Positions 1 through 24,020 of a stretch of 32,744 nucleotides of DNA are shown here, piece by piece. A program made the position numbers and the translations under genes. A model generated the notes under the pieces. That model was given only the letters and a program-made list of their open reading frames with translations, was not told where the DNA came from and did no database searches. Each line of letters starts with the position of its first letter. The first letter of the stretch is position 1. This DNA comes from Candidatus Tanganyikabacteria bacterium. Its GTDB lineage: Bacteria > Cyanobacteriota > Sericytochromatia > S15B-MN24 > VGJW01. The DNA lies in the NCBI GenBank assembly GCA_016867235.1, contig VGJY01000034.1, positions 1 through 32,744 of the forward strand. Reading direction: 5' to 3'.

Positions 1-150
1 CAGCGGGCCGGCCGCCGGAGTCGCTGCAGGCCCGCCGGGCGCGGGACCGGGCCCGAGGCTGCCGGTCAGGGGCCCGAGAGCGAGCGCGCAACCCTGGAGG
101 GCGGCGGCGGCGCAGAGTAGCAGGGAGGGAGAAGGGCGGCGTACTGGCAT
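1..150 (-). CDS. Lipoprotein, N-terminal part only (runs off the window)
   Basis: Only the first 50 codons lie in the window; the gene continues past position 1. It opens with MPVRRPSPSLLLCAAAALQG followed by Cys: a short basic stretch, a hydrophobic core and an L-Q-G-C lipobox with the modified cysteine at residue 21. The mature start is rich in Gly, Pro and Ala, as in the linker of many surface lipoproteins. An in-frame stop lies just upstream of the ATG, so this is the first possible start. No clear ribosome binding site is seen. The function cannot be told from this fragment. It points the same way as the subtilase gene upstream of it (316-1491) and may be cotranscribed with it. Confidence 0.6.
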   Translation of the reverse strand, partial: MPVRRPSPSLLLCAAAALQGCALALGPLTGSLGPGPAPGGPAATPAAGPL

Positions 151-247
151 GATGCGTCCAGCCTAGGCGCCGGGGATCAAGGCAAGATTGACCCTCCGCT
201 TCCCGGGTTTGTAGCAACCCCTGCTAGCCACGCCTGCTTTCCCCCCT

Positions 248-11825: not shown

Positions 11826-12602
11826 GTGCGCCTCCTGGTCGATCCACCGGCAGCCGGCGCCTACAACATGGCGCTGGACGAGGCCCTGCTCGAGGCCCTG
11901 GCCGGCGGCCAGGGGTTACCGACGCTCCGCTTCTACGACTGGTCCCCGCCCGCCCTGAGCCTGGGATACGCCCAGCCTGTCGAGGTCGTGGACCGGGACG
12001 CTTGCCGGCGGTGGGGAGTCGACGTGGTGCGCCGGCCCACGGGCGGCCGCGCCGTGCTCCACGACCGGGAATTGACCTATTCCGTGGTGATGCGGGCGGG
12101 GGGCGAGTCGGTGGCGGACAGCTACTGCCGCATCTCGAAGGCGATCGCCCGCGCCCTGGCCGCCATGGGAGTACCGGCGGAGGTGGCCGCCGGAAGCGCC
12201 CGCAAGGCGCCAGGCGTGGCCGATTGCTTCGCCGTAGCGACCCCGGCCGATCTGGTGGCCGGCTCCGGCCGAAAGCTCGCCGGCTCCGCGCAGGTCCGCC
12301 GCCACGGCCGTTTCCTGCAGCATGGTTCCATCAAGCTGGCGCCGTCGCCCATTCCGCTCGGCGAGTTGTTGCCGGGCCAGGCTGCGCCCTCGCCGGCTAC
12401 GGTCGCCGACTACCTGGGCACCCCGGCACCTGACCTAGCCGGCAGGCTGATGCGCGCGATCGCCGCCGAACTGGGCGTCCCCTGGGAACCCGCCGCGCCG
12501 ACCGCCGCGGAACTTCACCTTGCCGCGATCATCGCAGCTCGAACTTCATCCGTACCTGGCCCAGCTGATCGCGTTGCGGCGCGGCCGGATCGAGGGGCGT
12601 GA
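11802..12602 (+). CDS. lipM: Octanoyltransferase LipM-like (lipoate biosynthesis)
   Basis: A 266-residue member of the biotin/lipoate ligase fold. The marks are YNMALDEALLEAL, RRPTGGRAVLHDRELTYSV, and GVADCFAVATPADLVAGSGRKLAGSAQ followed by LQHGSI. Cys142 in DCF is where LipM enzymes carry the octanoyl thioester, and Lys158 (GRKLAGSAQ) is the conserved fold lysine. LipM moves octanoate from acyl carrier protein to GcvH, whose gene is about 7 kb upstream. The true start may be GTG 11826 (VRLLVDPPAAG), closer to where family members begin; neither start has a strong ribosome binding site. The last 24 codons overlap the 3' end of the convergent tonB gene (74 bases). A lipoate-protein ligase is the alternative reading, but the DCF cysteine favours LipM. 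Confidence 0.75.
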   Translation: MQATIPGTVRLLVDPPAAGAYNMALDEALLEALAGGQGLPTLRFYDWSPPALSLGYAQPVEVVDRDACRRWGVDVVRRPTGGRAVLHDRELTYSVVMRAGGESVADSYCRISKAIARALAAMGVPAEVAAGSARKAPGVADCFAVATPADLVAGSGRKLAGSAQVRRHGRFLQHGSIKLAPSPIPLGELLPGQAAPSPATVADYLGTPAPDLAGRLMRAIAAELGVPWEPAAPTAAELHLAAIIAARTSSVPGPADRVAARPDRGA

Positions 12603-13323
12603 ACCTGTAACGCCGGAAAGCCGCCAGCGCCGCCCGGTCGAGGTCGGGATCTCCCGCGGATCGCACCAGGTCCACCTCGACCACCTCTCCGGCAGGCGCG
12701 ACCCGGATCCTGGCGACAACCGTACCCTCCGAGTGGCGCTGCGCGGCCCCCGTGGGATACTCGGGCTCGAAGAGCTGGAAGCCTCGGCCGGCCAGATCGC
12801 CCGTCGCGCCCCGACCGGCTCCCACGGCGCCTCCGGCCGGCGGCGGATCGGCCGCTTCTCCGCGCCCGCCGTGGGCCTGCCTGTCTCCGGCTTCTTCGAG
12901 TTCGCGTCGCCGCGCCTCCTCCACCGAGCGACGGCGCTCTTCCTCGGCGGCCAGCGCGGCGAGATCGGGCTGCCGGACCTCCTCGATCCGCGGCTTGATC
13001 GCCTCGCGCGGGGGAGATGCGGGTACGGGCGCCTGGCGTATGGCCGCCGGCTTCGGCTCCACGACGCGCTCCACCGGCCGCTCGACCGGGACGTTTCGCA
13101 CCGGGGCGGCGACCCGCTTGGGCCGCGGAGCGTCATTCTCGCCGGCGACCTGGTCGCCCGGCGTCCCCAGATCGAGCAGCGTGAGCTCCAGGGGCGTCTC
13201 CGGTGCGACCTCGGTCGCCTTGATCGCGGGAATGAAGAGCAGCACCGCGAGTACCCAGGCGTGGATGACCAGGGACGTGCCCCAGGCCTCCCGGTTGGGT
13301 CGGATTTCGTAGTAACGGATCAC
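12529..13323 (-). CDS. tonB: TonB family energy-transducing protein
   Basis: A 264-residue TonB-like protein. It has a short cytoplasmic N-terminus, one membrane helix (about 15-35, WGTSLVIHAWVLAVLLFIPAI), a long Pro/Lys/Arg/Glu-rich periplasmic stretch (60-180) and a C-terminal TonB domain (185-262, with FEPEYPTGAAQRHSEGTVV, then DPDLDRAALAAFRRYRFTP). The family transmits inner-membrane proton-motive energy to outer-membrane receptors. The GTG start at 13323 lies about eight bases after GAGGAAG; longer open reading frame upstream would run into the preceding gene. It is the last gene of the operon with the barrel protein and the TPR protein. Partner genes exbB and exbD are not in the window. 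The 3' end overlaps lipM. Confidence 0.85.
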   Translation of the reverse strand: MIRYYEIRPNREAWGTSLVIHAWVLAVLLFIPAIKATEVAPETPLELTLLDLGTPGDQVAGENDAPRPKRVAAPVRNVPVERPVERVVEPKPAAIRQAPVPASPPREAIKPRIEEVRQPDLAALAAEEERRRSVEEARRRELEEAGDRQAHGGRGEAADPPPAGGAVGAGRGATGDLAGRGFQLFEPEYPTGAAQRHSEGTVVARIRVAPAGEVVEVDLVRSAGDPDLDRAALAAFRRYRFTPLDPAAPQRDQLGQVRMKFELR

Positions 13324-13336
13324 GGCAGGCTCTTCC

Positions 13337-14947
13337 TCAGAAATCGAGCCCGACGCCCGCGGTGATCTGGGCGGGGGTCGCGAAGTACCCCGCCGCGGGT
13401 TCCTGCTGCCAGACATGCCAATCCTTGCCCGCCACGATGATCTGCATTCCCGAATCCAGCCGGTATGCCGCCTCCCAGTCGGCGCGGACGTCGAGGCCCT
13501 GGCCGCCGCCCTGCGACGCGCCCAGTTCCACGTAGTCGACCGTCATGCCCGCGACCAGCGCCAGCTTGTCATCCAGCCACCTGCTCTCGTGCAAGGTGCC
13601 GCCCGAGAAGACCCGCTCGATCCCACCGGTAGGATTGCGCCAGCGGAGGGAGAATTTCTGCAGGGAGAAGTCCGACCAGATGTACTGGCTCGTCAGGCCC
13701 ATGTCGTAGACCTGCTGCCAGGCCGCCAGGTTTCGCGGCTGCCACAGCCCGTTGCCCGCGGGCGCGTAGTGAATCCAGTCGAGCGCATGCGACACGGCGA
13801 CGTGGGCCGTGCTGTAGGCCCGGTCGCTGAATCGGTGGCCGACTCCGGCCTCCACGCGGGGCGCGATCCGCTGCGGCCGCAGGTCGGCGTTGCCCGCCGT
13901 GCGGGTCCGCGAGAAGTAGAGCTCGTCGAAGCCGGGTTGCCGGGTCTCGGTGCGGACCTCCGCCCAGAACTCCGTCGGCGACGCCGCCACGTCGCCGTCC
14001 GCCACGCGCTGCCCGGGCCGAAACTCGGCGCGCAACCCCGGATCCAGGTAGGTGCTCTGCCGGAACAGCGACAGGCCCAGATCGCCTACCAGGGCGACCT
14101 GGGCGATCGGTTCGAACCGGTCCGCGGCGGACACGCCGAGCAACTGGCTGTTCCAGCCGCTGCCCGCCGGCCCCGCGGCGCCGAGTTGCCCGAGTTCCAG
14201 GCCCAGTTTCACCTGGTGGTCGCGCCAGAGCGGCTCCGGCTGGAAGTCGGCCCGTGCGGTCAAACCGTAGGCCAGCACGTCGCCAGGCGCGGCCGCGACC
14301 CGCCCCACCTCGCCCTGTATGTCGAGACAGAGAGCGTCGCTGCCGAGAGTGACTCCCAGCTTACCGCTCTCCTGCACCGCCGATGCGGCATTCGCTGCCG
14401 TCTGGCCCTCCCGGCGGTACCCGGCCGTGGCCCGGTACGCCTCGCTCCATGCGAGCTGCTGCCCGAACCGGATGCTCGACCAGCCGTCGAGGCCGTGCAG
14501 GTTGACACCCGCATCCGTCAGTGACCAGAGATCCCCGATCCGGCGGCCGTGGTAGAGACTCGCGTCGTAGCTGCCGAGGTGCCCGAGAGGCAGCGCGCCG
14601 AGGCCGCCCCGGAGGGACGTGAGGGGCTCCCGGTCGGACGGCGCGCCGACATCCTGCATGGCGTCGGGCGGCGCCGGCACGGCGAGGCGCAGCCTGTCCA
14701 GCAGCTCGGTGGTCGCTCGCACTGGAGCGGGAGGAGGCAGCGCGGCCACCGAGGCCGTGGCCTCCAGCGCCAGCTTGCTGCCCAGATTCACGTCCGGCTT
14801 CACCTCGTGGCCGATCACGCGCAGTTCGGGCAGGTCCACCGGCAGCTTCTCGACGGAGCGCTCTTCCGGCGGGCGCTCGGGCTCCGCGCTCGCCCCCACC
14901 GGCAGCAGCAGCACCCCGGCGGCGCAGCCGACGATCAGTCGCTTCAT
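13337..14947 (-). CDS. Outer-membrane beta-barrel protein, TonB-dependent-receptor-like
   Basis: A 536-residue predicted outer-membrane protein. MKRLIVGCAAGVLLLPVGASA is a cleavable signal peptide. Shortly after it comes KLPVDLPELRVIGHE (35-48), which resembles a TonB box. No typical plug domain is evident between it and the barrel. From about residue 115 on, alternating hydrophobic strands with many Tyr and Trp residues suggest a barrel, and the last residue is Phe (GVGLDF), the usual barrel-assembly signal. The start ATG overlaps the stop of the TPR gene (ATGA, 14944-14947), and the tonB start follows 13 bases after its stop, so the three are translated together. It is probably a TonB-energised transporter or a divergent relative; the ligand is unknown. 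Confidence 0.75.
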   Translation of the reverse strand: MKRLIVGCAAGVLLLPVGASAEPERPPEERSVEKLPVDLPELRVIGHEVKPDVNLGSKLALEATASVAALPPPAPVRATTELLDRLRLAVPAPPDAMQDVGAPSDREPLTSLRGGLGALPLGHLGSYDASLYHGRRIGDLWSLTDAGVNLHGLDGWSSIRFGQQLAWSEAYRATAGYRREGQTAANAASAVQESGKLGVTLGSDALCLDIQGEVGRVAAAPGDVLAYGLTARADFQPEPLWRDHQVKLGLELGQLGAAGPAGSGWNSQLLGVSAADRFEPIAQVALVGDLGLSLFRQSTYLDPGLRAEFRPGQRVADGDVAASPTEFWAEVRTETRQPGFDELYFSRTRTAGNADLRPQRIAPRVEAGVGHRFSDRAYSTAHVAVSHALDWIHYAPAGNGLWQPRNLAAWQQVYDMGLTSQYIWSDFSLQKFSLRWRNPTGGIERVFSGGTLHESRWLDDKLALVAGMTVDYVELGASQGGGQGLDVRADWEAAYRLDSGMQIIVAGKDWHVWQQEPAAGYFATPAQITAGVGLDF

Positions 14948-17853
14948 GGCTGGGGCCTCCGCACGTTCGCCTTGATCCAGGCGATGCGTGCCTGCGCTTC
15001 CTGCCGCTCCCGCTCGGGGAGCGTTTGATCGATGGCGACGGTGCCGTAGATGGTTTGCGCTTCGTCCCAGCGCCGCAGCCTTTCCAGCGCCTCGCCCTGC
15101 TTGAGCCATGCGAGGGCCTTCCAGGCCCGGAATGCGCTCGCCGGTTCCTTGCTGCCCGCGGGTTCCTTGGCGGAAGTTAGCGCCGTCAGCTCGAAAAGCG
15201 CGTCCTCGTAGCGCTTGCAGCCGACCAGGGCGTTGCCCAGCGCGTAGCGCACCTTCCAGGCGAACGCCGTTCCCTTGGCGGCCCGTTTCTCGGCCTTGCG
15301 GAAGGCCTCCTCCGCCTGAACGGCGTCGCCCTTGCCGAAGATCGTCTCCCCGAAGCGGTACCAGGCCTGGGCGAGGCGCTCGCCATCCGCACCGGGAGTC
15401 TTCTCCAGCCGTTCCAGCACCTCCCGCTCCAGCTCCCACCGGCCGGCTTCCTCGTAGGCATCGAAAAGCTCGAAGAGCACCGTGGCCGGCTTGACCGCGC
15501 CGTCGGGCTTGACCGCCCCCGCAAGCTGCTTGTAGACCTCGGCCGCGCCGGCGGGGTCGCCGCCCTTGCGCAAGGCGCGGGCCCGCTCCAGCGCCACCGC
15601 CGGGTCTCCGCCCGGGACGGCCGCATAGGCGGCGGCCGCCTGTTGCCACTTGCTCTCCTTGCCGTAGGCCTCGGCGATCTTCACCAGCATCCCGGGCACC
15701 CACGCGTCGCCGGTCGCCGCCGCCAGGACCACGCTCTCGGCCCTGGGCAACTGGCCGGCCCGCAGGTAGGCGCCGGCAAGAGGCTGGAGAACCGACGCGC
15801 GCACCTCGGCCGACGACGACGCATCCTCGAGGACCTGGGCGTACAGCACGGCCGATCGCTCGGCGTCGCCGCCGGATAGGTAGGCAGCGGCGGCGCGTAG
15901 CCGCGGATCGATCTCGCCGCTCCCGGATGCGGAGAGCGCCGGCAGGCCGATCAAGGCTTCGAATGCCTGGGCAGCCTCCCGGTACCGCTCGAGCTGGAGC
16001 AGGATCTGCGCCTGGTAAGTCCGCGCCTGCCGGCCCCGGGCGGAGGCGGGCAGCCGATCGGCGATCTGCGCGAAGCCCCGCATGGCATCGGGTAGCTCTC
16101 CGGCCTTCATGTGGCTCCATGCCAGGTAGAAGGCGCCCTCGGTCGGATCCGCGTCCCCGCCCAGCACCAGCACCTGCTTCAGCGAGGCCTGCGCTTCCTT
16201 GTACGCGCCCGCATCGAGTTGCAGCATCGCGAGGCGTTGGTACGCGTCGCGCTTGCGGTCGCTATCCAGGAGCTTGGCGGCCGCCTGCTTGAATGCCCAC
16301 ATGGCGGCGCCCCGGTTGCCACGCCGGAGCTCCGCCCAGCCCAGCCCGTACGCCGCCTCGGGCGCCTTCGGGGCGTCCGGGTGCCTGGCGACGACCTCCT
16401 CGAACGCGTCGGCGGCCTCGCCGAACCGGCCGAGGCGATAGAGAGCTTCGCCGCGCCAGAACTGCGCTTCGGGCACGAGCGGCCCCGGGTGGCGGACGAC
16501 TTCCTTGAAGGCGGCTTCGGCCGATTCGGTTTCGCCCGCCTTGAAGTAGGCCAGCCCCAGCTTGAACATGACGCGATTGCCTCGCCCCTCCAGGAAAGAC
16601 AGGCTCTCGGGCCGCTTGGCCAGACGCGCGTAGCTCTCGATGGCATCCGAGACCGCGCCGCTGGCGAGCTGCGACTCGGCGAGGAGCCACAAGCCCGGCA
16701 GGGCCAGGCGGCCGGTGGGATAGTCTTCCATGAGGCGCCGGCACCATTTCATCGCCTCCGCGGGCTTTCCCGCGGCGAGCTCCATCCCGGCGAGCTGGAA
16801 CAGCGACTCCTCTCCCCAGCGGCTCCGGCCGCCGGCAAGCACCGCCGAGTAGATCGCCCGCGCCTCGCCTGGCCGTCCCCGCTCCTGGAGGACGCGCCCC
16901 AGGGTATAGCGCGTCGCGAGACGGAAGCGGCTCGCCGGGTACGCCGTCAGGAAGGTTTCGAGGGCGTCCTCGGCCTCGCCGAGCCGGCCGGCCCGCCAAA
17001 GCGCGAAACCCACGCCGTAGCCCGCGGCCTCGGCCCACCGCGGCGACACCGCGGCGCGCCGGTAGGCCTGCGCGGCTCGCACCCAGTCGCCGGCATCGAT
17101 CGCGGCTTCGGCGGCCACGAACTCCGCCGTGTACGCGATCGCGTCGGGGTTGCGCTCTTCAGGATCTTCGGAAGTCGCCCGCAATTGCTCGGCGGCGAAC
17201 GCCAGGCGCCCCATGCGCAGGTAATGGTTGGCGAGGTTGAGGCGGGCCTCCTTGATGCGGGCGCTCAGCGGGAACTCGCGAATGGCTTGCTGCCAGAACC
17301 AGAGCGCACGCGCGTGGAGGCCGGCACGCGTCGCGGCCCAGCCCGCCCCGTACCATGCCGCCTCGCGAAGCGCGGCGTCGTCGCAGTCGTGCAGCGGGCG
17401 ATACGCCTCGATCGCACCCTCGTAGTCGCGAGCCTCCAGGAGCGCCTCTCCCAGGCGCAGGCGGACCGGCAACCCGTCGCGCCAGGGCAACGCATTGATC
17501 TGCGCGCGATAGGCGCGGATCGCCCGCGTCTGCTTGCCCTGCAGGGCGTAGAGATCCGCGAGTTCGCCCGCCGCGCGCGCGAACCAGGCCGACTCGGCCG
17601 GGATCTTCGCGAGGGCGTCCTCGGCTCCGGCCAGATCGCCCAGGCGGCGGCGGGCCTGTCCCAGCAGATAGAGCGCCCGTTCCCGCTCGGCGCCGCGAAG
17701 GCCGGGCAGTTTCCTGGAGAGCGCGAGGGCGGCCTGGCTGTGGGCGCCGCGCTCGAGCAACGCGATGGGCCGCTCGCCGATACCGGGCAATGCCTGGGCC
17801 GGCGCACCGGCCATCAGGCTAAAAGCCAGTAGACAAGCGAACTTCCGGAACAT
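14944..17853 (-). CDS. Large periplasmic TPR-repeat protein
   Basis: A 969-residue protein with a signal peptide (MFRKFACLLAFSLMAGAPAQA, cleavage after Ala-Gln-Ala) followed almost entirely by tetratricopeptide-like helical repeats, for example AEAAFKEVVRHPGPLVPEA, then RLGRFGEAADAFEEVVARHPDAP. TPR arrays hold protein partners; here it would act in the periplasm. It is the first gene of the operon TPR - barrel - tonB, with a four-base overlap to the barrel gene, so it likely assists the assembly or function of that barrel. No enzyme motif is visible. It has no ribosome binding site; TACAAT lies exactly six bases before the ATG, the strongest case in the window for a leaderless start. An upstream ATG at 17889 lacks a signal peptide at its N-terminus and is not preferred. 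Confidence 0.85.
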   Translation of the reverse strand: MFRKFACLLAFSLMAGAPAQALPGIGERPIALLERGAHSQAALALSRKLPGLRGAERERALYLLGQARRRLGDLAGAEDALAKIPAESAWFARAAGELADLYALQGKQTRAIRAYRAQINALPWRDGLPVRLRLGEALLEARDYEGAIEAYRPLHDCDDAALREAAWYGAGWAATRAGLHARALWFWQQAIREFPLSARIKEARLNLANHYLRMGRLAFAAEQLRATSEDPEERNPDAIAYTAEFVAAEAAIDAGDWVRAAQAYRRAAVSPRWAEAAGYGVGFALWRAGRLGEAEDALETFLTAYPASRFRLATRYTLGRVLQERGRPGEARAIYSAVLAGGRSRWGEESLFQLAGMELAAGKPAEAMKWCRRLMEDYPTGRLALPGLWLLAESQLASGAVSDAIESYARLAKRPESLSFLEGRGNRVMFKLGLAYFKAGETESAEAAFKEVVRHPGPLVPEAQFWRGEALYRLGRFGEAADAFEEVVARHPDAPKAPEAAYGLGWAELRRGNRGAAMWAFKQAAAKLLDSDRKRDAYQRLAMLQLDAGAYKEAQASLKQVLVLGGDADPTEGAFYLAWSHMKAGELPDAMRGFAQIADRLPASARGRQARTYQAQILLQLERYREAAQAFEALIGLPALSASGSGEIDPRLRAAAAYLSGGDAERSAVLYAQVLEDASSSAEVRASVLQPLAGAYLRAGQLPRAESVVLAAATGDAWVPGMLVKIAEAYGKESKWQQAAAAYAAVPGGDPAVALERARALRKGGDPAGAAEVYKQLAGAVKPDGAVKPATVLFELFDAYEEAGRWELEREVLERLEKTPGADGERLAQAWYRFGETIFGKGDAVQAEEAFRKAEKRAAKGTAFAWKVRYALGNALVGCKRYEDALFELTALTSAKEPAGSKEPASAFRAWKALAWLKQGEALERLRRWDEAQTIYGTVAIDQTLPERERQEAQARIAWIKANVRRPQP

Positions 17854-17880
17854 GTCTCTATTGTAGGAAGGCCAGGAGGG

Positions 17881-17978
17881 CCCGCGCAAGCCGAACGATC
17901 ACAACCGGACGACTCTTGCGCGGGTCGCCAGGTTCCTTCCGCCATAAGAACCCCGCAACTGCGCGATTTTCAATCGCG
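17881..17978. promoter_or_regulatory. Two inverted repeats in a divergent intergenic region
   Basis: The gap 17854-18019 separates the divergent TPR operon and the lipoprotein pair. CCCGCGCAAG (17881-17890) is repeated inverted as CTTGCGCGGG (17915-17924), ten perfect pairs 24 bases apart. Further on, CGCGATT and AATCGCG (17962-17978) form a second perfect inverted repeat around TTC. Either may be a regulator-binding site or an RNA hairpin in the leader of the plus-strand gene. Confidence 0.4.
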
Positions 17979-18019
17979 ATGGATAACGCGGAAATCCGTG
18001 GCATGAAGTGCTTGTGCCG

Positions 18020-19018
18020 ATGGCGAGGTTGCTAGGCGCGGCCATCACTGGCTTGGCCGTCGCCGTCGGCTGCGCGGGACCGCCCGCGGCGCTGGATGGC
18101 GCGGCGACGGGATTGACGGCCGCGCAGAGCGCGCTGACGCTCGCCGGCCGCGTCGAGTTCGGCGGGCCAGGGCGCCAGACGGCGACGACCATCGGGGAGA
18201 TCGCGGTCGCCGCCACGGTCGCGTTCCTGGACGTGGCGACCAACACGACGGTGACGACCGCCAAGACCGATCAGGACGGCTCCTTCGTCCTGACCTTCAC
18301 CGGCGGCTTCCGGCCCGACCCGGCCAAGTACTACATCATCGAGGCGATCAAGGGCCTCGCCGGCAACATGCCGGGCAACGACGCGGCCCGCGTCCGCACC
18401 ATCGCCAACTGGAACGGCCTGAATGGCTGGCAGTCGATGACGACCGGCGGCCTCAACATCAACCCGACAACGACCTCCCTGGCCATCATGCAGGCGAGTT
18501 ACCTGGCTGCCAGGGTGCCGGGCGCGCGGAGCGATCCGGCCCGCTACATGAACCTGGTCGTCGGCAAGGCTCCAGCGCTCGACCTGCCCGCTCCGCTGGC
18601 GAGCGGCCAGACCACGGTGGATCCCGCGGCCCTCCTGACGGTCCTGCGACTGGTCGCCAAGGCCATCCAGTTCGACGCCGATCCGGTCGCCGCGGTGCTC
18701 TACAACGCCCTGACCGCCACGTTCGGTGCCCCCGCCCTCGCCGTCGCCCCGACCATCGCGGGCCTCGTGCCGGCTGGCGCCGCGCGCGGCACGGACATCA
18801 CGATCTACGGGACGCGGTTCTCGGCCAACAAGGTGCTCAACACCGTCTACATCGGTACCCGCGCCGCGACGGTCCTGGAAGCCACCGAATCGTCGCTGAA
18901 GATCAAGGTGCCCGACGACGCCACTTCGGGCGACGTCAAGGTCGTCACCGCCGACGGCGAGAGCAACAGGCTCGCCTTCACCGTGTTCCCGGATCCGGGG
19001 GGATTCCTGCAACCTTGA
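18020..19018 (+). CDS. Lipoprotein with N-terminal CnaB-like region and IPT/TIG domain
   Basis: A 332-residue exported protein. MARLLGAAITGLAVAVGC gives a lipobox with Cys18. Residues 40-115 look like a carboxypeptidase-regulatory (CnaB-like) beta domain (LAGRVEF, then TDQDGSFVLTFTGG). Residues 105-160 are mainly helical and contain RVRTIANWNGLNGWQSM. The C-terminal part (243-322) is an IPT/TIG Ig-like fold (PTIAGLVPAGAARGTDITIYG, then SGDVKVVTADGES). The first two parts match the N-terminal region of the 1051-residue protein at 20133-23288, so the two are related. The start is uncertain: GTG 18008 is in frame and neither has a convincing ribosome binding site. The stop overlaps the TTG start of the next gene (TTGA). 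Its role is unknown, probably at the cell surface. Confidence 0.78.
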   Translation: MARLLGAAITGLAVAVGCAGPPAALDGAATGLTAAQSALTLAGRVEFGGPGRQTATTIGEIAVAATVAFLDVATNTTVTTAKTDQDGSFVLTFTGGFRPDPAKYYIIEAIKGLAGNMPGNDAARVRTIANWNGLNGWQSMTTGGLNINPTTTSLAIMQASYLAARVPGARSDPARYMNLVVGKAPALDLPAPLASGQTTVDPAALLTVLRLVAKAIQFDADPVAAVLYNALTATFGAPALAVAPTIAGLVPAGAARGTDITIYGTRFSANKVLNTVYIGTRAATVLEATESSLKIKVPDDATSGDVKVVTADGESNRLAFTVFPDPGGFLQP

Positions 19019-20034
19019 AACTCGCCTCCTGGCCCGCCCGCGCGGCCATCGCCGGACTCCTGGCCGGCTGTGTCGGCAGCTTGCAGACCAACCTCGCGGC
19101 GGGGCCGGGCGGCGCGGCGCCCGGCGTGGCCCCGCCCGCGGAAAACGCTTCCCCGCCGCAGGCTGCCATGCCGACCGGCCGGATCGCCATCGCCGTCGTC
19201 TGGCCGGTGCGCGGGCCGGACTACCGGGCGCAGGTCATCCCCGAGAGTGCCAACAGCATCCGGATCCGGGTGATGGACAAGACCGACACGCTGCTTCCCG
19301 GCGGCGAAGCGCTGCTGCGGCGCCCGACCGGCGGATCGCTAGTTTCGACCGCGAGCCTCGACGTGGCGGCCGGCAAGGACCTCAAGGTCGAGGCCAAGGC
19401 ATTCAAGCTGCAGTCGCCTTCCGATTCGACCGTGCCGATCGCGCTGGGCGTCAAGACCGGCGTCACCGTGACTACCAGCTCCCTGACGAGCGTCACCGTC
19501 AGGCTCGACCCGGCAAACCCGCCCGCGATCTCGGATTTCTCGCCGCCGAATGCAGGACCGGGAGCGATCGTGAGGATCCTGGGAGCCAATTTCCTGCTCG
19601 GGTCCGTCAGCGTGCGCTTCACCAGCGAGGCCACGGCGACGATCAGCGTCGCGGGCGACACCGCGCTCTCGGTCGAGGTTCCGACCGGGTCGGTCACCGG
19701 CTTCGTCTCTCTTACCACCGACGGCATCTCGCTGACGAGCACCGCGGCCTTCGTGGTCCTCAAGACCCTGACGCTGTCGCCCGCCGCGACCTCGGGCGTG
19801 GCGACCGGCAGCGCCGTCACGTTCACCCTGGCCGGCAAGGACACGTCGGACGCAACGGTGACGGGCGCCTCGGCGGCCATCACGCTGGAGCCCGCGCCCC
19901 TGGCCGGCGAAGACGGGACCGAGTTCAACGCGAGTGTCGTGGGCTTGCGGGTCACCCCGACCTCGACCGGCTCATGGATCGTCAAGGCCAAGAGCGGCTC
20001 GGTCGAGTCGACCGCCTCCCTGTCGGCCCGCTAA
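19015..20034 (+). CDS. Lipoprotein with IPT/TIG and Ig-like domains
   Basis: A 339-residue exported protein starting at TTG 19015, which overlaps the previous stop in the sequence TTGA; GGGGGA about ten bases upstream can serve as ribosome binding site. MKLASWPARAAIAGLLAGC has a clean L-A-G-C lipobox (Cys19). After an Ala/Pro/Gly linker (20-53), residues 55-165 form a beta-rich domain seen in no other protein here, 169-249 an IPT/TIG domain (PPAISDFSPPNAGPGAIVRI), and 250-336 another Ig-like domain (LTLSPAATSGVATGSAVTFTL) resembling bacterial Ig repeats. There are no catalytic motifs. It probably works with the preceding lipoprotein on the cell surface. Confidence 0.8.
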   Translation: MKLASWPARAAIAGLLAGCVGSLQTNLAAGPGGAAPGVAPPAENASPPQAAMPTGRIAIAVVWPVRGPDYRAQVIPESANSIRIRVMDKTDTLLPGGEALLRRPTGGSLVSTASLDVAAGKDLKVEAKAFKLQSPSDSTVPIALGVKTGVTVTTSSLTSVTVRLDPANPPAISDFSPPNAGPGAIVRILGANFLLGSVSVRFTSEATATISVAGDTALSVEVPTGSVTGFVSLTTDGISLTSTAAFVVLKTLTLSPAATSGVATGSAVTFTLAGKDTSDATVTGASAAITLEPAPLAGEDGTEFNASVVGLRVTPTSTGSWIVKAKSGSVESTASLSAR

Positions 20035-20055
20035 AAGGATTTCGCTTTGAATTGA

Positions 20056-20101
20056 GGGTGGGGCCGGCGTCTCTGCCGGCCGGCACGGAGGTCGGCCCTA
20101 C
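20056..20101. repeat. Composite palindromic repeat between convergent genes
   Basis: This gap element begins with GGGTGGGGCCGGC-GTCTCT-GCCGGCC, nearly identical to the tandem units at 32473-32609. It continues with GGCACGGAGGTCGGCCCTAC, which is the reverse complement of the version before rplK (27042-27065) with one change. Two versions of the element are thus joined head to head. It lies between the convergent ends of two lipoprotein operons, where it could terminate transcription from both sides. Confidence 0.6.
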
Positions 20102-20132
20102 TCGATGTGGATCCGGTCGAGGCGAAACCGGC

Positions 20133-23100
20133 TTAGTACGTGTAGTTGAAGCCGAAGCTGTTGATGGTCGCGTCCACCGACACCGTGGCGCGCCAGCGCA
20201 GGTAGCGGCGCTTCGGCACCGACGCCAGGTTGGTGGTCCACGAACTCCAGGACGACCCGTCGGTGCTCGACGAGAACTCGATCCCGGTGACGTTGCCGCT
20301 GTTGTTGGTCCGCGCCAGCGTGGCCGACGTGAAGGTGGGCTGCACCGAGCGCGAGTCGTAGCCCTTGGAGACCGCGGTTCCGACGTACGGGGCGAGCGGC
20401 GCCGAGGCTGCTCCCGACGAACGCGGCGTGCTGCCGGGCAGTGACGCGGCCTCGTTCCCCGAACTCGGGAAGTTGCTGCCGTTGAGCGTGGCGTACTGGA
20501 GACGGACCCGGCCGAAGCCGCCGTCGCCACCCTTGCTCTGCCCATTGCTGATCGAGCAGTTGCCACGGAAGCAGTTCAAGTACTGGCCCGCCCCCCCGTT
20601 GACGCGGACCGAGCCGCCGGCCAGGGACATCGTGCTGGCGTGCAGGTAGATGGAGCCGCCGCTCCCGCCGCCGGTGTTCCGGTAGCCGTCGGTGCCGCCG
20701 TTGTTGCCGTTGGCCGAGATGATGCCGTTGTTCGTCAGGGTGAGCGCGTGGACGATGACGACTCCCCCGCCGTTGCCGCCGGTGCCCCCGTCGCCGGTGC
20801 TGAAGGCGCCGCCCCCGCCGCCGCCGGCCCCGGGGAAGATGCGCGAGAGGTCGGCCTGGCCTCCGGCGCGGCCGCCGGTGCCGTACATCTGCCACCCCGA
20901 AGATTGCGTCAGGCCCCTCGTGCCGTCTTCGCCGGCCGAGCCGTAGCCGCCGCCGCCGCCGCCGCCCGGGACGTTCGAGCCGCAAGACTCGGACGAGGCG
21001 CCGCCCCCGCCATTGCTGCCGTTGACCGCCTGGCCGCCCTGGCCGCCCCGCGTGGAGCCACCGGCCGGGGAGGAAGCCGATCCGCCTTCGCCGTAGCCGC
21101 CGCCGCCACCGCCCCAGTCCTGGGTGCAGCTCACGAGCGCTCCGCCGGCGCCGCCGCCGTCACTGGCGCTCGCGCGCGGTGCGCCGCCATTCGGGTTGCC
21201 GCCCGAACTCCGGCTGCCGCCCGTCGCGCCCAGGCCGGTCATGTCGATCGAGCCGCCAGAATTGACCGTGACTTGTTTGGCCCGGAAGACGAGCCAGCCA
21301 CCGGTGGAGCTTGCCGTGTCCACCCCCAGACCGGTCAGGCGGCCGGACACCGTCACGGTACCGTAGTGCGGCACTTTCTGCACCAGGGCCTGCCGCGTCG
21401 TGTATGCCACGGATACCGGCGTGTCGAGCGTCAGATCGTTCCCGCCGATCGCCGTGATCGTCCGATAGTCGTACCGCCCGGCGTTGGTACCCCAGAGCGC
21501 GACGATGAAGACTTCCTGGCCGACGGCGAAGCCGCTTGCGCTGACCAGGGTCAGCCGGTTGGCTCCGGCCGGCGCGCTGGCGTTGAGCAACGACCGCGGC
21601 GCGTCGCCGGTCCCGAGCGTCCGCGTCTGGCCGGCGGGCACGGTCAGGTCGCCATCCAGGCCGCCCACCCCGATGGCGTTCGCCGCCCAGTTCACGCCGT
21701 CGGAGAGCGCCGAGTCGTAGTACGTGCTGGTCGTGAAGGTGTCGCTCATGGACGACCGGGCCACGAACGAGCTGAAGTCCTCGCTGTAGTCGCCGACCTC
21801 GTTGATGATGACCACCGGGCCCGAGACGACCTTGGCGGGATTGGGATCGGGCGATAGCGCCACCGCCTTGCCGTCCTGCCAGAGAGAGACCGATTTCGCG
21901 TCGGTACCGTCCTTGCCATTGAAGCGCACCGTGCTGTTGGCCCCCTGCCGGCCGAAATTCGTGCCGGTTATCGTGACCTGCGTGCCGGGAGTGCCCTCGA
22001 AGGGATCGGGTTCGGCCGCGGTGATGACGGGACGATCGATGTTGAAGAAGAAGCCATTGCTGGTGGTCGTGCCCACCTTGAGGGAGAGGTTGCCCGACGA
22101 GGCGCCGCTGGGCACTCTCACGGTGAGGGCATTGAACGAGGCCGTCACGGGGGTGGCGACCTTGTTGTTGCCGAAGGTGATCACGTTGGCCGCGGCAACG
22201 TTCGAGAAGCCCTGCCCCACGATGTTGATCGTGTCGCCCGACCTGGCCGACGGCGGCACGAGATTCGAGATGGCGATCCCGGTGCCGGCCTGCGACGCCC
22301 TGACCGTGAAGGGCACCCCCGCACTGGAGCCGAGCGACGTCGCCACCGACACGTTGCCGCTCACGGCTCCCTGCGGCACGCTCACCAGCAGGGACGTGGG
22401 CGTGGCCAGGTAGACCCCGGCCTGCACACCCGATTCGAACGTCACGACGTTTCCCGACAGCAGGGGCGAGAAGCCGACGCCGTCGATGCGCACCGCCTGG
22501 CCGACCTCGGCCGTGGGGGTGATGGCGTCTACCCGGGGCTTGATCGCCGTGACCGACGAGACCGGGTCGACGTCGCCGGCCAGGAAGCCCAGGATGGCCG
22601 CGGCCAGGCCGTTGATCTCGGCGTCGGGATGGCCGCCGGCCTTGAAGGGCTCGCCCGTCAGGGGGTTGGGATAGGAGACCTTCGCGATCGTGTTGATCGC
22701 CTTGACATTGGCCGGGTCGAGGCTGCTCTCGAGGGCCAGGGCGGTGGTCAGGGCATTGACGACGATGCCGGGGCCGGAAATCGAGTCCCATAGACCGGTC
22801 CAGCGCAGGATGGTGCGGAAGCGCAGGGCATCCTTGCCGGCGGCGTTCTTGGCCAGGTTGCGGCTCGCCTCGAGGAGGTAGGTCGTCTCGCCGGCCCCGG
22901 ACGGGTTGTAGCCGTTGAGGAGCAGCGTGAAGTTGCCGTTGGAATCGGTCTTGCCCACCACGACGGTGGCGCCCGTGTCGTCGTAGAGGGCCAGGGCGGC
23001 TCCCGCCGCCACGTAGTTGGACGATGCCTGGACCTTGAACTCCTGCGGGAACTCGACGCGGCCGCGGATGGCGGTGTCTACCGCCGGGGCGGGCTGGCCG

Positions 23101-23288
23101 AGATCGGGTTGCCGGCCTATGAAGGTGATCGCGTCGGAGGTCGCCCGCGCGGCGTCGCTCGAGGCCCCCGGGCTGCCGGCCCCCGGCGGCACCTGGCAAG
23201 CGACGAGGACGACGCACACCAGGCCGGCGAGCCACCTGAGGAGCGGCAGGCCCAGCGGCCCGGTCTTCCTCGTCGGTGCGTGCGCCAT
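20133..23288 (-). CDS. Very large surface lipoprotein: three IPT/TIG domains and glycine-rich region
   Basis: A 1051-residue predicted surface protein. The signal ends in VVLVAC (Cys31). Domains in order: CnaB-like beta domain (72-140, TDSNGNFTLLLNG) and helical segment (140-245) related to the protein at 18020; IPT/TIG domains at about 251-329, 338-416 and 419-500; a beta-rich region (500-683) with VNWAANAIGVGGLDGDLTVP; a glycine-rich stretch (684-925) with many GGGGG runs; and a C-terminal beta domain (980-1051) ending in FNYTY. Glycine-rich stretches of this kind occur in secreted beta-helical or adhesive proteins. No catalytic motif is visible. It follows the lipoprotein at 23295-24020 after six bases and is in one operon with it. 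The C-terminus might also serve export, but this is a guess. Confidence 0.85.
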   Translation of the reverse strand: MAHAPTRKTGPLGLPLLRWLAGLVCVVLVACQVPPGAGSPGASSDAARATSDAITFIGRQPDLGQPAPAVDTAIRGRVEFPQEFKVQASSNYVAAGAALALYDDTGATVVVGKTDSNGNFTLLLNGYNPSGAGETTYLLEASRNLAKNAAGKDALRFRTILRWTGLWDSISGPGIVVNALTTALALESSLDPANVKAINTIAKVSYPNPLTGEPFKAGGHPDAEINGLAAAILGFLAGDVDPVSSVTAIKPRVDAITPTAEVGQAVRIDGVGFSPLLSGNVVTFESGVQAGVYLATPTSLLVSVPQGAVSGNVSVATSLGSSAGVPFTVRASQAGTGIAISNLVPPSARSGDTINIVGQGFSNVAAANVITFGNNKVATPVTASFNALTVRVPSGASSGNLSLKVGTTTSNGFFFNIDRPVITAAEPDPFEGTPGTQVTITGTNFGRQGANSTVRFNGKDGTDAKSVSLWQDGKAVALSPDPNPAKVVSGPVVIINEVGDYSEDFSSFVARSSMSDTFTTSTYYDSALSDGVNWAANAIGVGGLDGDLTVPAGQTRTLGTGDAPRSLLNASAPAGANRLTLVSASGFAVGQEVFIVALWGTNAGRYDYRTITAIGGNDLTLDTPVSVAYTTRQALVQKVPHYGTVTVSGRLTGLGVDTASSTGGWLVFRAKQVTVNSGGSIDMTGLGATGGSRSSGGNPNGGAPRASASDGGGAGGALVSCTQDWGGGGGGYGEGGSASSPAGGSTRGGQGGQAVNGSNGGGGASSESCGSNVPGGGGGGGYGSAGEDGTRGLTQSSGWQMYGTGGRAGGQADLSRIFPGAGGGGGGAFSTGDGGTGGNGGGVVIVHALTLTNNGIISANGNNGGTDGYRNTGGGSGGSIYLHASTMSLAGGSVRVNGGAGQYLNCFRGNCSISNGQSKGGDGGFGRVRLQYATLNGSNFPSSGNEAASLPGSTPRSSGAASAPLAPYVGTAVSKGYDSRSVQPTFTSATLARTNNSGNVTGIEFSSSTDGSSWSSWTTNLASVPKRRYLRWRATVSVDATINSFGFNYTY

Positions 23289-23294
23289 CTCTCG

Positions 23295-24020
23295 CTACTC
23301 CACCGTCACGTCGAGGCGCCCCTTGGTGGTGATGGTGATGGTCGCCTTGTCGGAGAGCGAACTGCCCTTGGCCGTCGCCGTGATGGTCACGTCGCCGGGG
23401 CTCGCCGACGCCAGCGCCGTGACCGTCCCGTCGCTGCCGACCGTCACGCGCAGCGGATCCGAACTCGTCCAGTCCACGACGGACGTCGTGGCCGCGTCGG
23501 ACAGTGTCACGACCACCGAGAGCTTCATGGTCGAGACGAAACCGGGGAGGTTGGTGCCGGTCGGCGCCTTGGCGTTGAGTTCGCCGGTCTTCGGCGCCAC
23601 CTTCACGCTCGTGGGAAAGGCGGTGGGCTGGGGAGTCGGGGTGGGGGTCGGAGTCGGAGTGGGCGACGGGGTGATCACAGGCTCCGGCGGGAGCGTCCGC
23701 AGCGGCGTCGGTGTGGGATCGGGTACAGGGGTGGACTGGGTGGCCGCGGAGTCCGTCGCGATGGGTGTGGGAGTCACGCCGACGCTGCCCGAGGAGGGCG
23801 ACGCCGACGGGACTGGCGATCCCGTCGCGCTGCCCGTGGCCGGGCTCGCGAATACGTCGATCGAACCGGATGCGTCCACCGGCGCTCTCCCCCCCTGGCT
23901 GCGGATCCGCACCGAGCCGGGCTCGTCGCAGCCCATCGCCAGGGCCAGCAGGCACGCAGCCACCGAGGTGGGAAGCCTTGCTGTTCCCGTGCGAGCGATT
24001 GTTTCGACCTTCTCCACCAC
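23295..24020 (-). CDS. Lipoprotein with Thr-Pro linker and Big2-like domain
   Basis: A 241-residue exported protein. It begins at GTG 24020 (or the adjacent GTG 24017). The hydrophobic stretch ACLLALAMGC gives a lipobox with Cys31. Residues 32-140 are a low-complexity Ser/Thr/Pro linker with a run of Thr-Pro repeats around 115-130. Residues 143-240 form an Ig-like domain of the bacterial Big2 type (VVDWTSSDPLRVTVGSDGTV, then ASPGDVTITATAKGSS). Such domains occur in surface adhesins and polymer-binding proteins. It is the first gene of a two-gene operon with the 1051-residue protein. The linker DNA is itself a GT-rich imperfect tandem repeat and so prone to length changes. Confidence 0.8.
   Translation of the reverse strand: MVEKVETIARTGTARLPTSVAACLLALAMGCDEPGSVRIRSQGGRAPVDASGSIDVFASPATGSATGSPVPSASPSSGSVGVTPTPIATDSAATQSTPVPDPTPTPLRTLPPEPVITPSPTPTPTPTPTPQPTAFPTSVKVAPKTGELNAKAPTGTNLPGFVSTMKLSVVVTLSDAATTSVVDWTSSDPLRVTVGSDGTVTALASASPGDVTITATAKGSSLSDKATITITTKGRLDVTVE

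What the first reader, a model, noticed from the sequence alone, without database searches (positions are those of the whole stretch)
18020..23288. A shared N-terminal domain in two TIG lipoproteins
Residues about 42-160 of the 332-residue protein and 75-190 of the 1051-residue protein share a pattern: GRVEF, KTDxxGxFxL, then LAxNxxGxDAxRxRTIxxWxGL, and a Thr/Ala/Leu stretch. It includes a CnaB-like beta part and a helical part not seen elsewhere in the window. It may be a new domain that precedes TIG folds.
Basis: seen in the sequence. Interest (0 to 1): 0.5.

Follow-up and report, generated by a model that had tools for sequence, protein, structure and literature searches.

The report
New base domain of surface lipoproteins
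Two neighbouring lipoproteins start with the same previously unnamed protein domain, which one class of non-photosynthetic Cyanobacteria relatives uses dozens of times as the foot of lipid-anchored proteins carrying many different binding heads.

Summary
The shared segment is one domain of about 190 residues (P0001 about 38-226, P0002 about 72-248), not 115. A profile trained only on other genomes finds both copies (152 and 140 bits; best shuffle 4.6), and its second half alone also finds both. No Pfam or NCBIfam family covers it. The first half is a remote CarboxypepD_reg/CnaB/transthyretin-like beta sandwich, far below Pfam's cut-off; the helical cap is unnamed. The window's genome has 28 matches and related genomes up to 33. 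All lie in the class that holds Candidatus Sericytochromatia; 226 other Cyanobacteriota genomes have none. The domain occurs once per protein, just after the lipidation cysteine, and is followed by TIG, NHL or Kelch propellers, carbohydrate-binding and LamG domains or a Gly-rich region. Best explanation: a membrane-proximal foot/spacer of surface lipoproteins, working like the unrelated Bacteroidota domains DUF1735 and BACON. Genes often sit beside another copy (70 of 106), commonly short plus long, so a role in pairing is possible but unproven. Function is inferred, not shown. Distribution outside the phylum is only partly tested.

The parts
18020..19018 (+). P0001, 332-aa short lipoprotein: signal peptide, N-terminal domain, one TIG
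18071..18073 (+). presumed lipidation Cys18 (AVGC; a somewhat loose lipobox)
   Evidence: read from the translation; pattern counted across the family
18131..18697 (+). the new N-terminal domain in P0001, about residues 38-226 (beta sandwich plus helical cap)
18749..18979 (+). TIG domain of P0001 (residues 244-320)
   Evidence: E 3.8e-9
20133..23288 (-). P0002, 1051-aa long lipoprotein: signal peptide, N-terminal domain, TIG domains, Gly-rich region
23196..23198 (-). presumed lipidation Cys31 (LVAC)
   Evidence: read from the translation
22545..23075 (-). the new N-terminal domain in P0002, about residues 72-248
21903..22535 (-). TIG domains of P0002 (three stretches; approximate limits, residues 252-462)
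20469..21017 (-). Gly-rich region of P0002 (residues 758-940), weak match to AgmC_N below its cut-off
   Evidence: 54.5 bits, cut-off 275
19015..20034 (+). P0003, neighbouring lipoprotein of another family; partner in the four-gene clusters of L042 and L049
23295..24020 (-). P0004, neighbouring lipoprotein with Pro/Thr linker and Big_2; partner in the four-gene clusters

Best explanation
The segment is a single new domain family of about 190 residues: a CarboxypepD_reg/transthyretin-like beta sandwich followed by a helical cap. It is confined, as far as tested, to the class containing Candidatus Sericytochromatia. It works as the membrane-proximal foot of lipid-anchored, probably surface-exposed, outer-membrane lipoproteins. 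The Cys is lipidated, a short linker follows, the domain folds next to the membrane as a rigid spacer, and a variable head (TIG, beta-propeller, carbohydrate-binding/LamG, Gly-rich) is held out to bind glycans, proteins or surfaces. Shown by computation: family, limits, fold model, single N-terminal copy after a Cys, variety of heads, copy number and distribution. Inferred: lipidation, outer-membrane and surface location, spacer role, and what the heads bind.
For: Profile statistics without the window's genome. AF2 models of P0001 (pLDDT 85.8, pTM 0.74) and of the P0002 domain alone (pLDDT 84.0, pTM 0.84) both give a sandwich plus helices. 115 domain proteins, none with two copies; 93 of 107 with enough sequence upstream have a lipobox-like Cys by a simple rule, median 21 residues before the domain. 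Of the other 14, most show a Cys after a hydrophobic stretch by eye. Heads vary: TIG 51, NHL 25, Laminin_G_3 4, Kelch_6 3, CBM_4_9 2 of 78 tails; CBM_4_9 + LamG in one protein. 28 matches in G000 and 33 in G006. The design matches that reported for DUF1735 (abstract and section 15 of PMC11216935).
Against: No experiment. No surface-export signal or localisation was tested. The conserved W, RxRT and DP residues could serve binding, not just folding; no coordinates were available to see whether they are exposed. The frequent adjacency of two copies suggests more than a passive spacer. 36 of 106 domain genes have no domain neighbour within 1.5 kb, some of them at contig ends.
Confidence: 0.62

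Rival explanations
1. The domain is an assembly module: short (domain + one TIG) and long (domain + head) lipoproteins, or two long ones, pair through their N-terminal domains into hetero-complexes at the membrane.
For: 70 of 106 near-complete domain genes have another domain gene within 1.5 kb, and 16 of 26 short genes have a long one. Five loci in five genomes (L024, L048, L051, L053, L055) each hold one member of the same two clades. Adjacent pairs are as distant in the tree as other same-genome pairs (median 2.40 vs 2.36), so most are not recent duplicates.
Against: Adjacency also follows from old tandem duplication plus co-expression. The test that pairs span the deepest tree split was negative (15 of 40; permutation mean 17.4; 1699 of 2000 at least as high). 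No complex was predicted or measured. In the window the two genes are convergent, 1.1 kb apart.
Confidence: 0.2
2. The domain itself binds a ligand (glycan, metal or peptidoglycan) near the membrane.
For: Nearly invariant Trp, Tyr, Arg and Asp-Pro positions. The best whole-domain structural look-alike is the non-heme domain of the cytochrome PgcA (9i0d, Z 7.4, 101 aligned, 3.1 A), whose entry title names the mutations D208A D212A.
Against: Z below 8 may be only a common arrangement (note). Conserved aromatics may lie in the core. No ligand evidence.
Confidence: 0.12
3. It is simply a divergent CarboxypepD_reg/CnaB domain followed by a disordered or non-homologous linker, with nothing new.
For: 42 of 77 members have a CarboxypepD_reg match at E <= 1, best 4e-4.
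Against: No copy in the own genome reaches the cut-off and matches stop near profile position 46 of 82. The second half is conserved on its own and is modelled as helices with high confidence.
Confidence: 0.06

Closest known systems
DUF1735 (Pfam PF08522, BT_3987-like_N) of Bacteroidota
   Same: N-terminal, mostly after a lipoprotein signal, in front of varied heads such as Laminin_G_3; dozens of copies per genome; confined to one lineage; beta sandwich (PMC11216935, abstract and section 15)
   Different: No sequence match in the window's genome; ours has a helical cap, a different lineage, and no link to polysaccharide loci was examined
BACON (PF13004) and SusE/SusF N-termini
   Same: Proposed N-terminal spacers at the foot of surface lipoproteins (PMC11216935, section 15)
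   Different: One sub-cut-off BACON match in the genome, not in the window's contig
CarboxypepD_reg (PF13620) / CnaB / transthyretin-like sandwiches
   Same: First half of the domain: weak sequence match and similar fold (UafA E 0.18; transthyretin-related 2g2n Z 6.8, 95 aligned, 3.2 A)
   Different: Below cut-off, partial match only; the helical cap and its motifs are not in that family
PgcA non-heme domain (PDB 9i0d)
   Same: Best structural match spanning the whole model, 5..182; PgcA is a triheme cytochrome of extracellular electron transfer (PMC11520253, abstract start in the listing and passages)
   Different: Z 7.4 only; no sequence match; relationship unproven
TIG + NHL lipoproteins such as BT_3476 (PDB 3tc9)
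   Same: TIG fold of P0001 and, in relatives, TIG followed by an NHL propeller; that 3tc9 itself is a TIG + NHL lipoprotein is recalled, not from a call
   Different: Matches cover the TIG only, not the new domain

Membership tests
CarboxypepD_reg (PF13620) | score over Pfam's gathering cut-off (32.3 bits) | tested here: not met
   15.5 (P0002) and 14.2 bits (P0001); no domain copy in G000 over the cut-off
CarboxypepD_reg (PF13620) | match over most of the 82-position profile | tested here: not met
   positions 6-42 and 11-43 only for the two window copies
Transthyretin/CnaB-like beta sandwich (fold) | clear structural match of the beta half | tested here: inconclusive
   Foldseek 0 matches at E <= 1e-3; VIA Z 6-7 over model 5-115
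DUF1735 (PF08522) | profile match | tested here: not met
   0 matches in the own genome at E <= 1
DUF1735-like N-terminal lipoprotein spacers (functional class) | single N-terminal copy directly after a lipidated Cys | tested here: met
   115 proteins, none with two copies; 93 of 107 lipobox-like by rule, distance 7-46 residues; lipidation itself not shown
DUF1735-like N-terminal lipoprotein spacers (functional class) | varied C-terminal heads, including sugar-binding ones | tested here: met
DUF1735-like N-terminal lipoprotein spacers (functional class) | encoded in polysaccharide utilisation loci | not tested
BACON (PF13004) | profile match | tested here: not met
   one match at E 0.5 on contig C390, below cut-off; none on C34
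TIG (PF01833), for the following domain | score over cut-off (20.9) | tested here: met
   36.9 bits P0001, 54 bits P0002

The most novel reading that the evidence does not exclude
The domain is the coupling part of a large, lineage-specific surface system: each genome encodes a battery of matched, non-identical lipoprotein pairs that join foot to foot at the outer membrane and display interchangeable heads, much as Bacteroidota use Sus-type lipoprotein sets, but evolved separately in the sister class of Cyanobacteria.
Probability: 0.17. Interest if true: 0.65.

Novelty: new variant of a known kind. Interest (0 to 1): 0.42.

Why it matters
It defines an apparently undescribed domain present about 28-33 times in the two richest genomes of a barely studied class, and gives a handle for recognising many of its multi-headed surface lipoproteins. 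It also suggests that the 'spacer foot plus exchangeable head' design known in Bacteroidota arose independently next to the Cyanobacteria.

Tried and rejected
Rejected: chance or composition. Rejected: membership of CarboxypepD_reg, DUF1735 or BACON. PADLOC (defence) gave nothing for the four proteins. Viral contigs: no stretch with the motif. Plasmids: four Hymenobacter records, TIG part only. The whole-P0001 fold search told nothing of the domain because TIG filled the list, so the P0002 domain was modelled alone. That gave no Foldseek match at E <= 1e-3 in PDB or among viral proteins; a missing match does not make the fold new. The test that adjacent copies come from opposite sides of the deepest tree split failed, and midpoint roots differed between the two trees. 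Distribution outside the Cyanobacteriota could be tested only by one exact-motif scan of 84,980 species (27 stretches, 11 relatives), by plasmids and by viral contigs, so it is not settled. Rows dropped: A1 took 77 of the 82 domains (incomplete ones left out); the pair statistics took 106 of 115. A4 took 78 of the 79 tails listed. Papers: searches (Sericytochromatia with lipoprotein, surface protein, TIG domain, NHL, S15B-MN24; Tanganyikabacteria; PgcA; BACON) listed nothing describing this domain. Of the papers listed there, I read passages of PMC11520253 and PMC8245535 and the abstract and section 15 of PMC11216935; of the rest only the listings. The library is open-access only.

Full report
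Observation. P0001 (332 aa) and P0002 (1051 aa) align over P0001 41-322 and P0002 74-329 (E 2e-20, 31%). Pfam sees only TIG domains, plus sub-cut-off matches (bMG3 at E 0.05 in P0002); NCBIfam adds a sub-cut-off AgmC-type match to the Gly-rich part of P0002.

A domain family. Searching the window's own genome with P0001 gave 31 matches on many contigs. An iterated profile from 38 stretches of seven genomes plus the window gathered 82 domains, model length 192. A profile built from rows outside the window's genome (54 rows before a gap filter) scores P0001 152.0 and P0002 140.2 bits, against 4.6 for the best shuffle and 1.8 for the best other ORF of the window. The second half alone gives 44.4 and 55.8 bits against 5.0. 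The nearly invariant positions include A-T, G.F, Y..E..K, R.RT, W, TTA and DP.

Known families. Of 77 members scanned on their own, 42 show a CarboxypepD_reg match at E <= 1 (best 4e-4), 15 bMG3 and 11 Big_6 (25 of 36 families shown); NCBIfam gave no consistent family, the commonest being an ECF transporter model in 10 of 77. In the own genome CarboxypepD_reg scores 15.5 and 14.2 bits on the two window copies (cut-off 32.3) and matches about half of its profile. DUF1735 has no match and BACON none over its cut-off. PDB sequences give only a weak CnaB-type match, UafA, E 0.18.

Structure. The AF2 model of mature P0001 has mean pLDDT 85.8 and pTM 0.74: strands up to residue 130 (precursor 147), helices 132-146 and 185-200, then TIG. 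The P0002 domain alone gives pLDDT 84.0, pTM 0.84 and the same order. Both rest on small alignments (24 and 23 sequences). PDB comparison of the domain alone: no Foldseek match at E <= 1e-3. The second look ranks the PgcA non-heme domain first (Z 7.4, 101 aligned, 3.1 A, spanning model 5-182), then mostly transthyretin-like proteins (Z about 6-7, model 5-115). These Z values are middling and do not prove kinship.

Distribution. With the A1 profile, 11 of 18 genomes of the class match at E <= 0.001, one of them (G008) only weakly: G000 28, G006 33, G003 17, G001 13, G002 7, G004 6, G010 6, G014 5, G009 4, G008 2, G015 1 matches, fragments included. The other seven have none. Of 244 genomes of the phylum, the same 11 match; the 226 outside the class do not. 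Named relatives include Candidatus Sericytochromatia S15B-MN24 CBMW_12 and Candidatus Tanganyikabacteria. Their contig lengths equal those of G009 and G002, which places the window in that class (lineage). That last step is inference.

Architecture. Among 115 domain proteins none has two copies. 93 of 107 with enough upstream sequence have a lipobox-like Cys 7-46 residues before the domain (median 21) by a simple rule, and most of the other 14 show one by eye. Pfam on 78 tails: TIG 51, NHL 25, Laminin_G_3 4, Kelch_6 3, CBM_4_9 2. Single proteins show NHL without a TIG match, CBM_4_9 + LamG, an FGE-sulfatase-type domain, or no known family. So the domain is the constant foot and the head varies.

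Gene pairs. Among 106 near-complete domains, 70 genes have another domain gene within 1.5 kb, and 16 of 26 short genes (tail of at most 130 aa) have a long neighbour. There are 40 adjacent pairs; their tree distance is on median the same as for any two copies of one genome (2.40 vs 2.36), so adjacency is mostly not recent duplication. In five genomes the same two clades sit side by side (L024, L048, L051, L053, L055). A test for pairs spanning the deepest split was negative. The P0002 group includes L049 (G001) and two copies in L042 (G006); P0001 groups with L040 (G003) and L041 (G009). In L042 (twice) and L049 the relatives of P0001, P0002, P0003 and P0004 form one cluster on one strand. In the window the same four genes lie as two convergent pairs.

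Mechanism. The best reading is a membrane-proximal foot that holds varied binding heads off the outer membrane. The same design is reported for DUF1735 in Bacteroidota: exclusive to that phylum, 46 copies in B. thetaiotaomicron, mostly N-terminal with lipoprotein signals, in front of Laminin_G_3 and other heads (abstract and section 15 of PMC11216935). Ours works like it but is no member: there is no profile match, and a helical cap is added. Lipidation, surface location and spacer action are inferred. Pairing of neighbours through the domain is the boldest reading left open.

Verdict. A real, apparently undescribed domain family, lineage-restricted as far as tested; a new variant of a known kind of module. 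Literature searches listed nothing describing it.

Noticed in passing
window 19015-20034 (P0003) and 23295-24020 (P0004): P0003 has 25 matches in the window's genome and matches in 12 of 18 class genomes, some through TIG only. P0004-like genes often sit directly beside P0003-like ones: 16 of the 28 P0004 matches examined. This may be a second lipoprotein pair system.
   Followed up: partly
window 18008-24020: The four lipoprotein genes are two convergent pairs here but one same-strand cluster in L042 (twice) and L049, suggesting an inversion in the window's lineage.
   Followed up: partly
window 12529-17889 (-): A TPR protein, a predicted secreted protein without a Pfam match and a TonB_C protein lie in a row, divergent from P0001; the envelope context fits a diderm cell.
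   Followed up: no
window 20469-21017 (P0002 residues 758-940): Long Gly-rich stretch with a sub-cut-off match to the gliding protein AgmC N-terminal model (54.5 of 275 bits). Among the ORFs searched, the region after residue 490 matched only L042 13376-16114 besides itself.
   Followed up: partly
L044 2747-10532 and L045 2962-12351: Four tandem domain genes each, whose copies alternate between two clades (ABAB), as from duplication of a pair.
   Followed up: no
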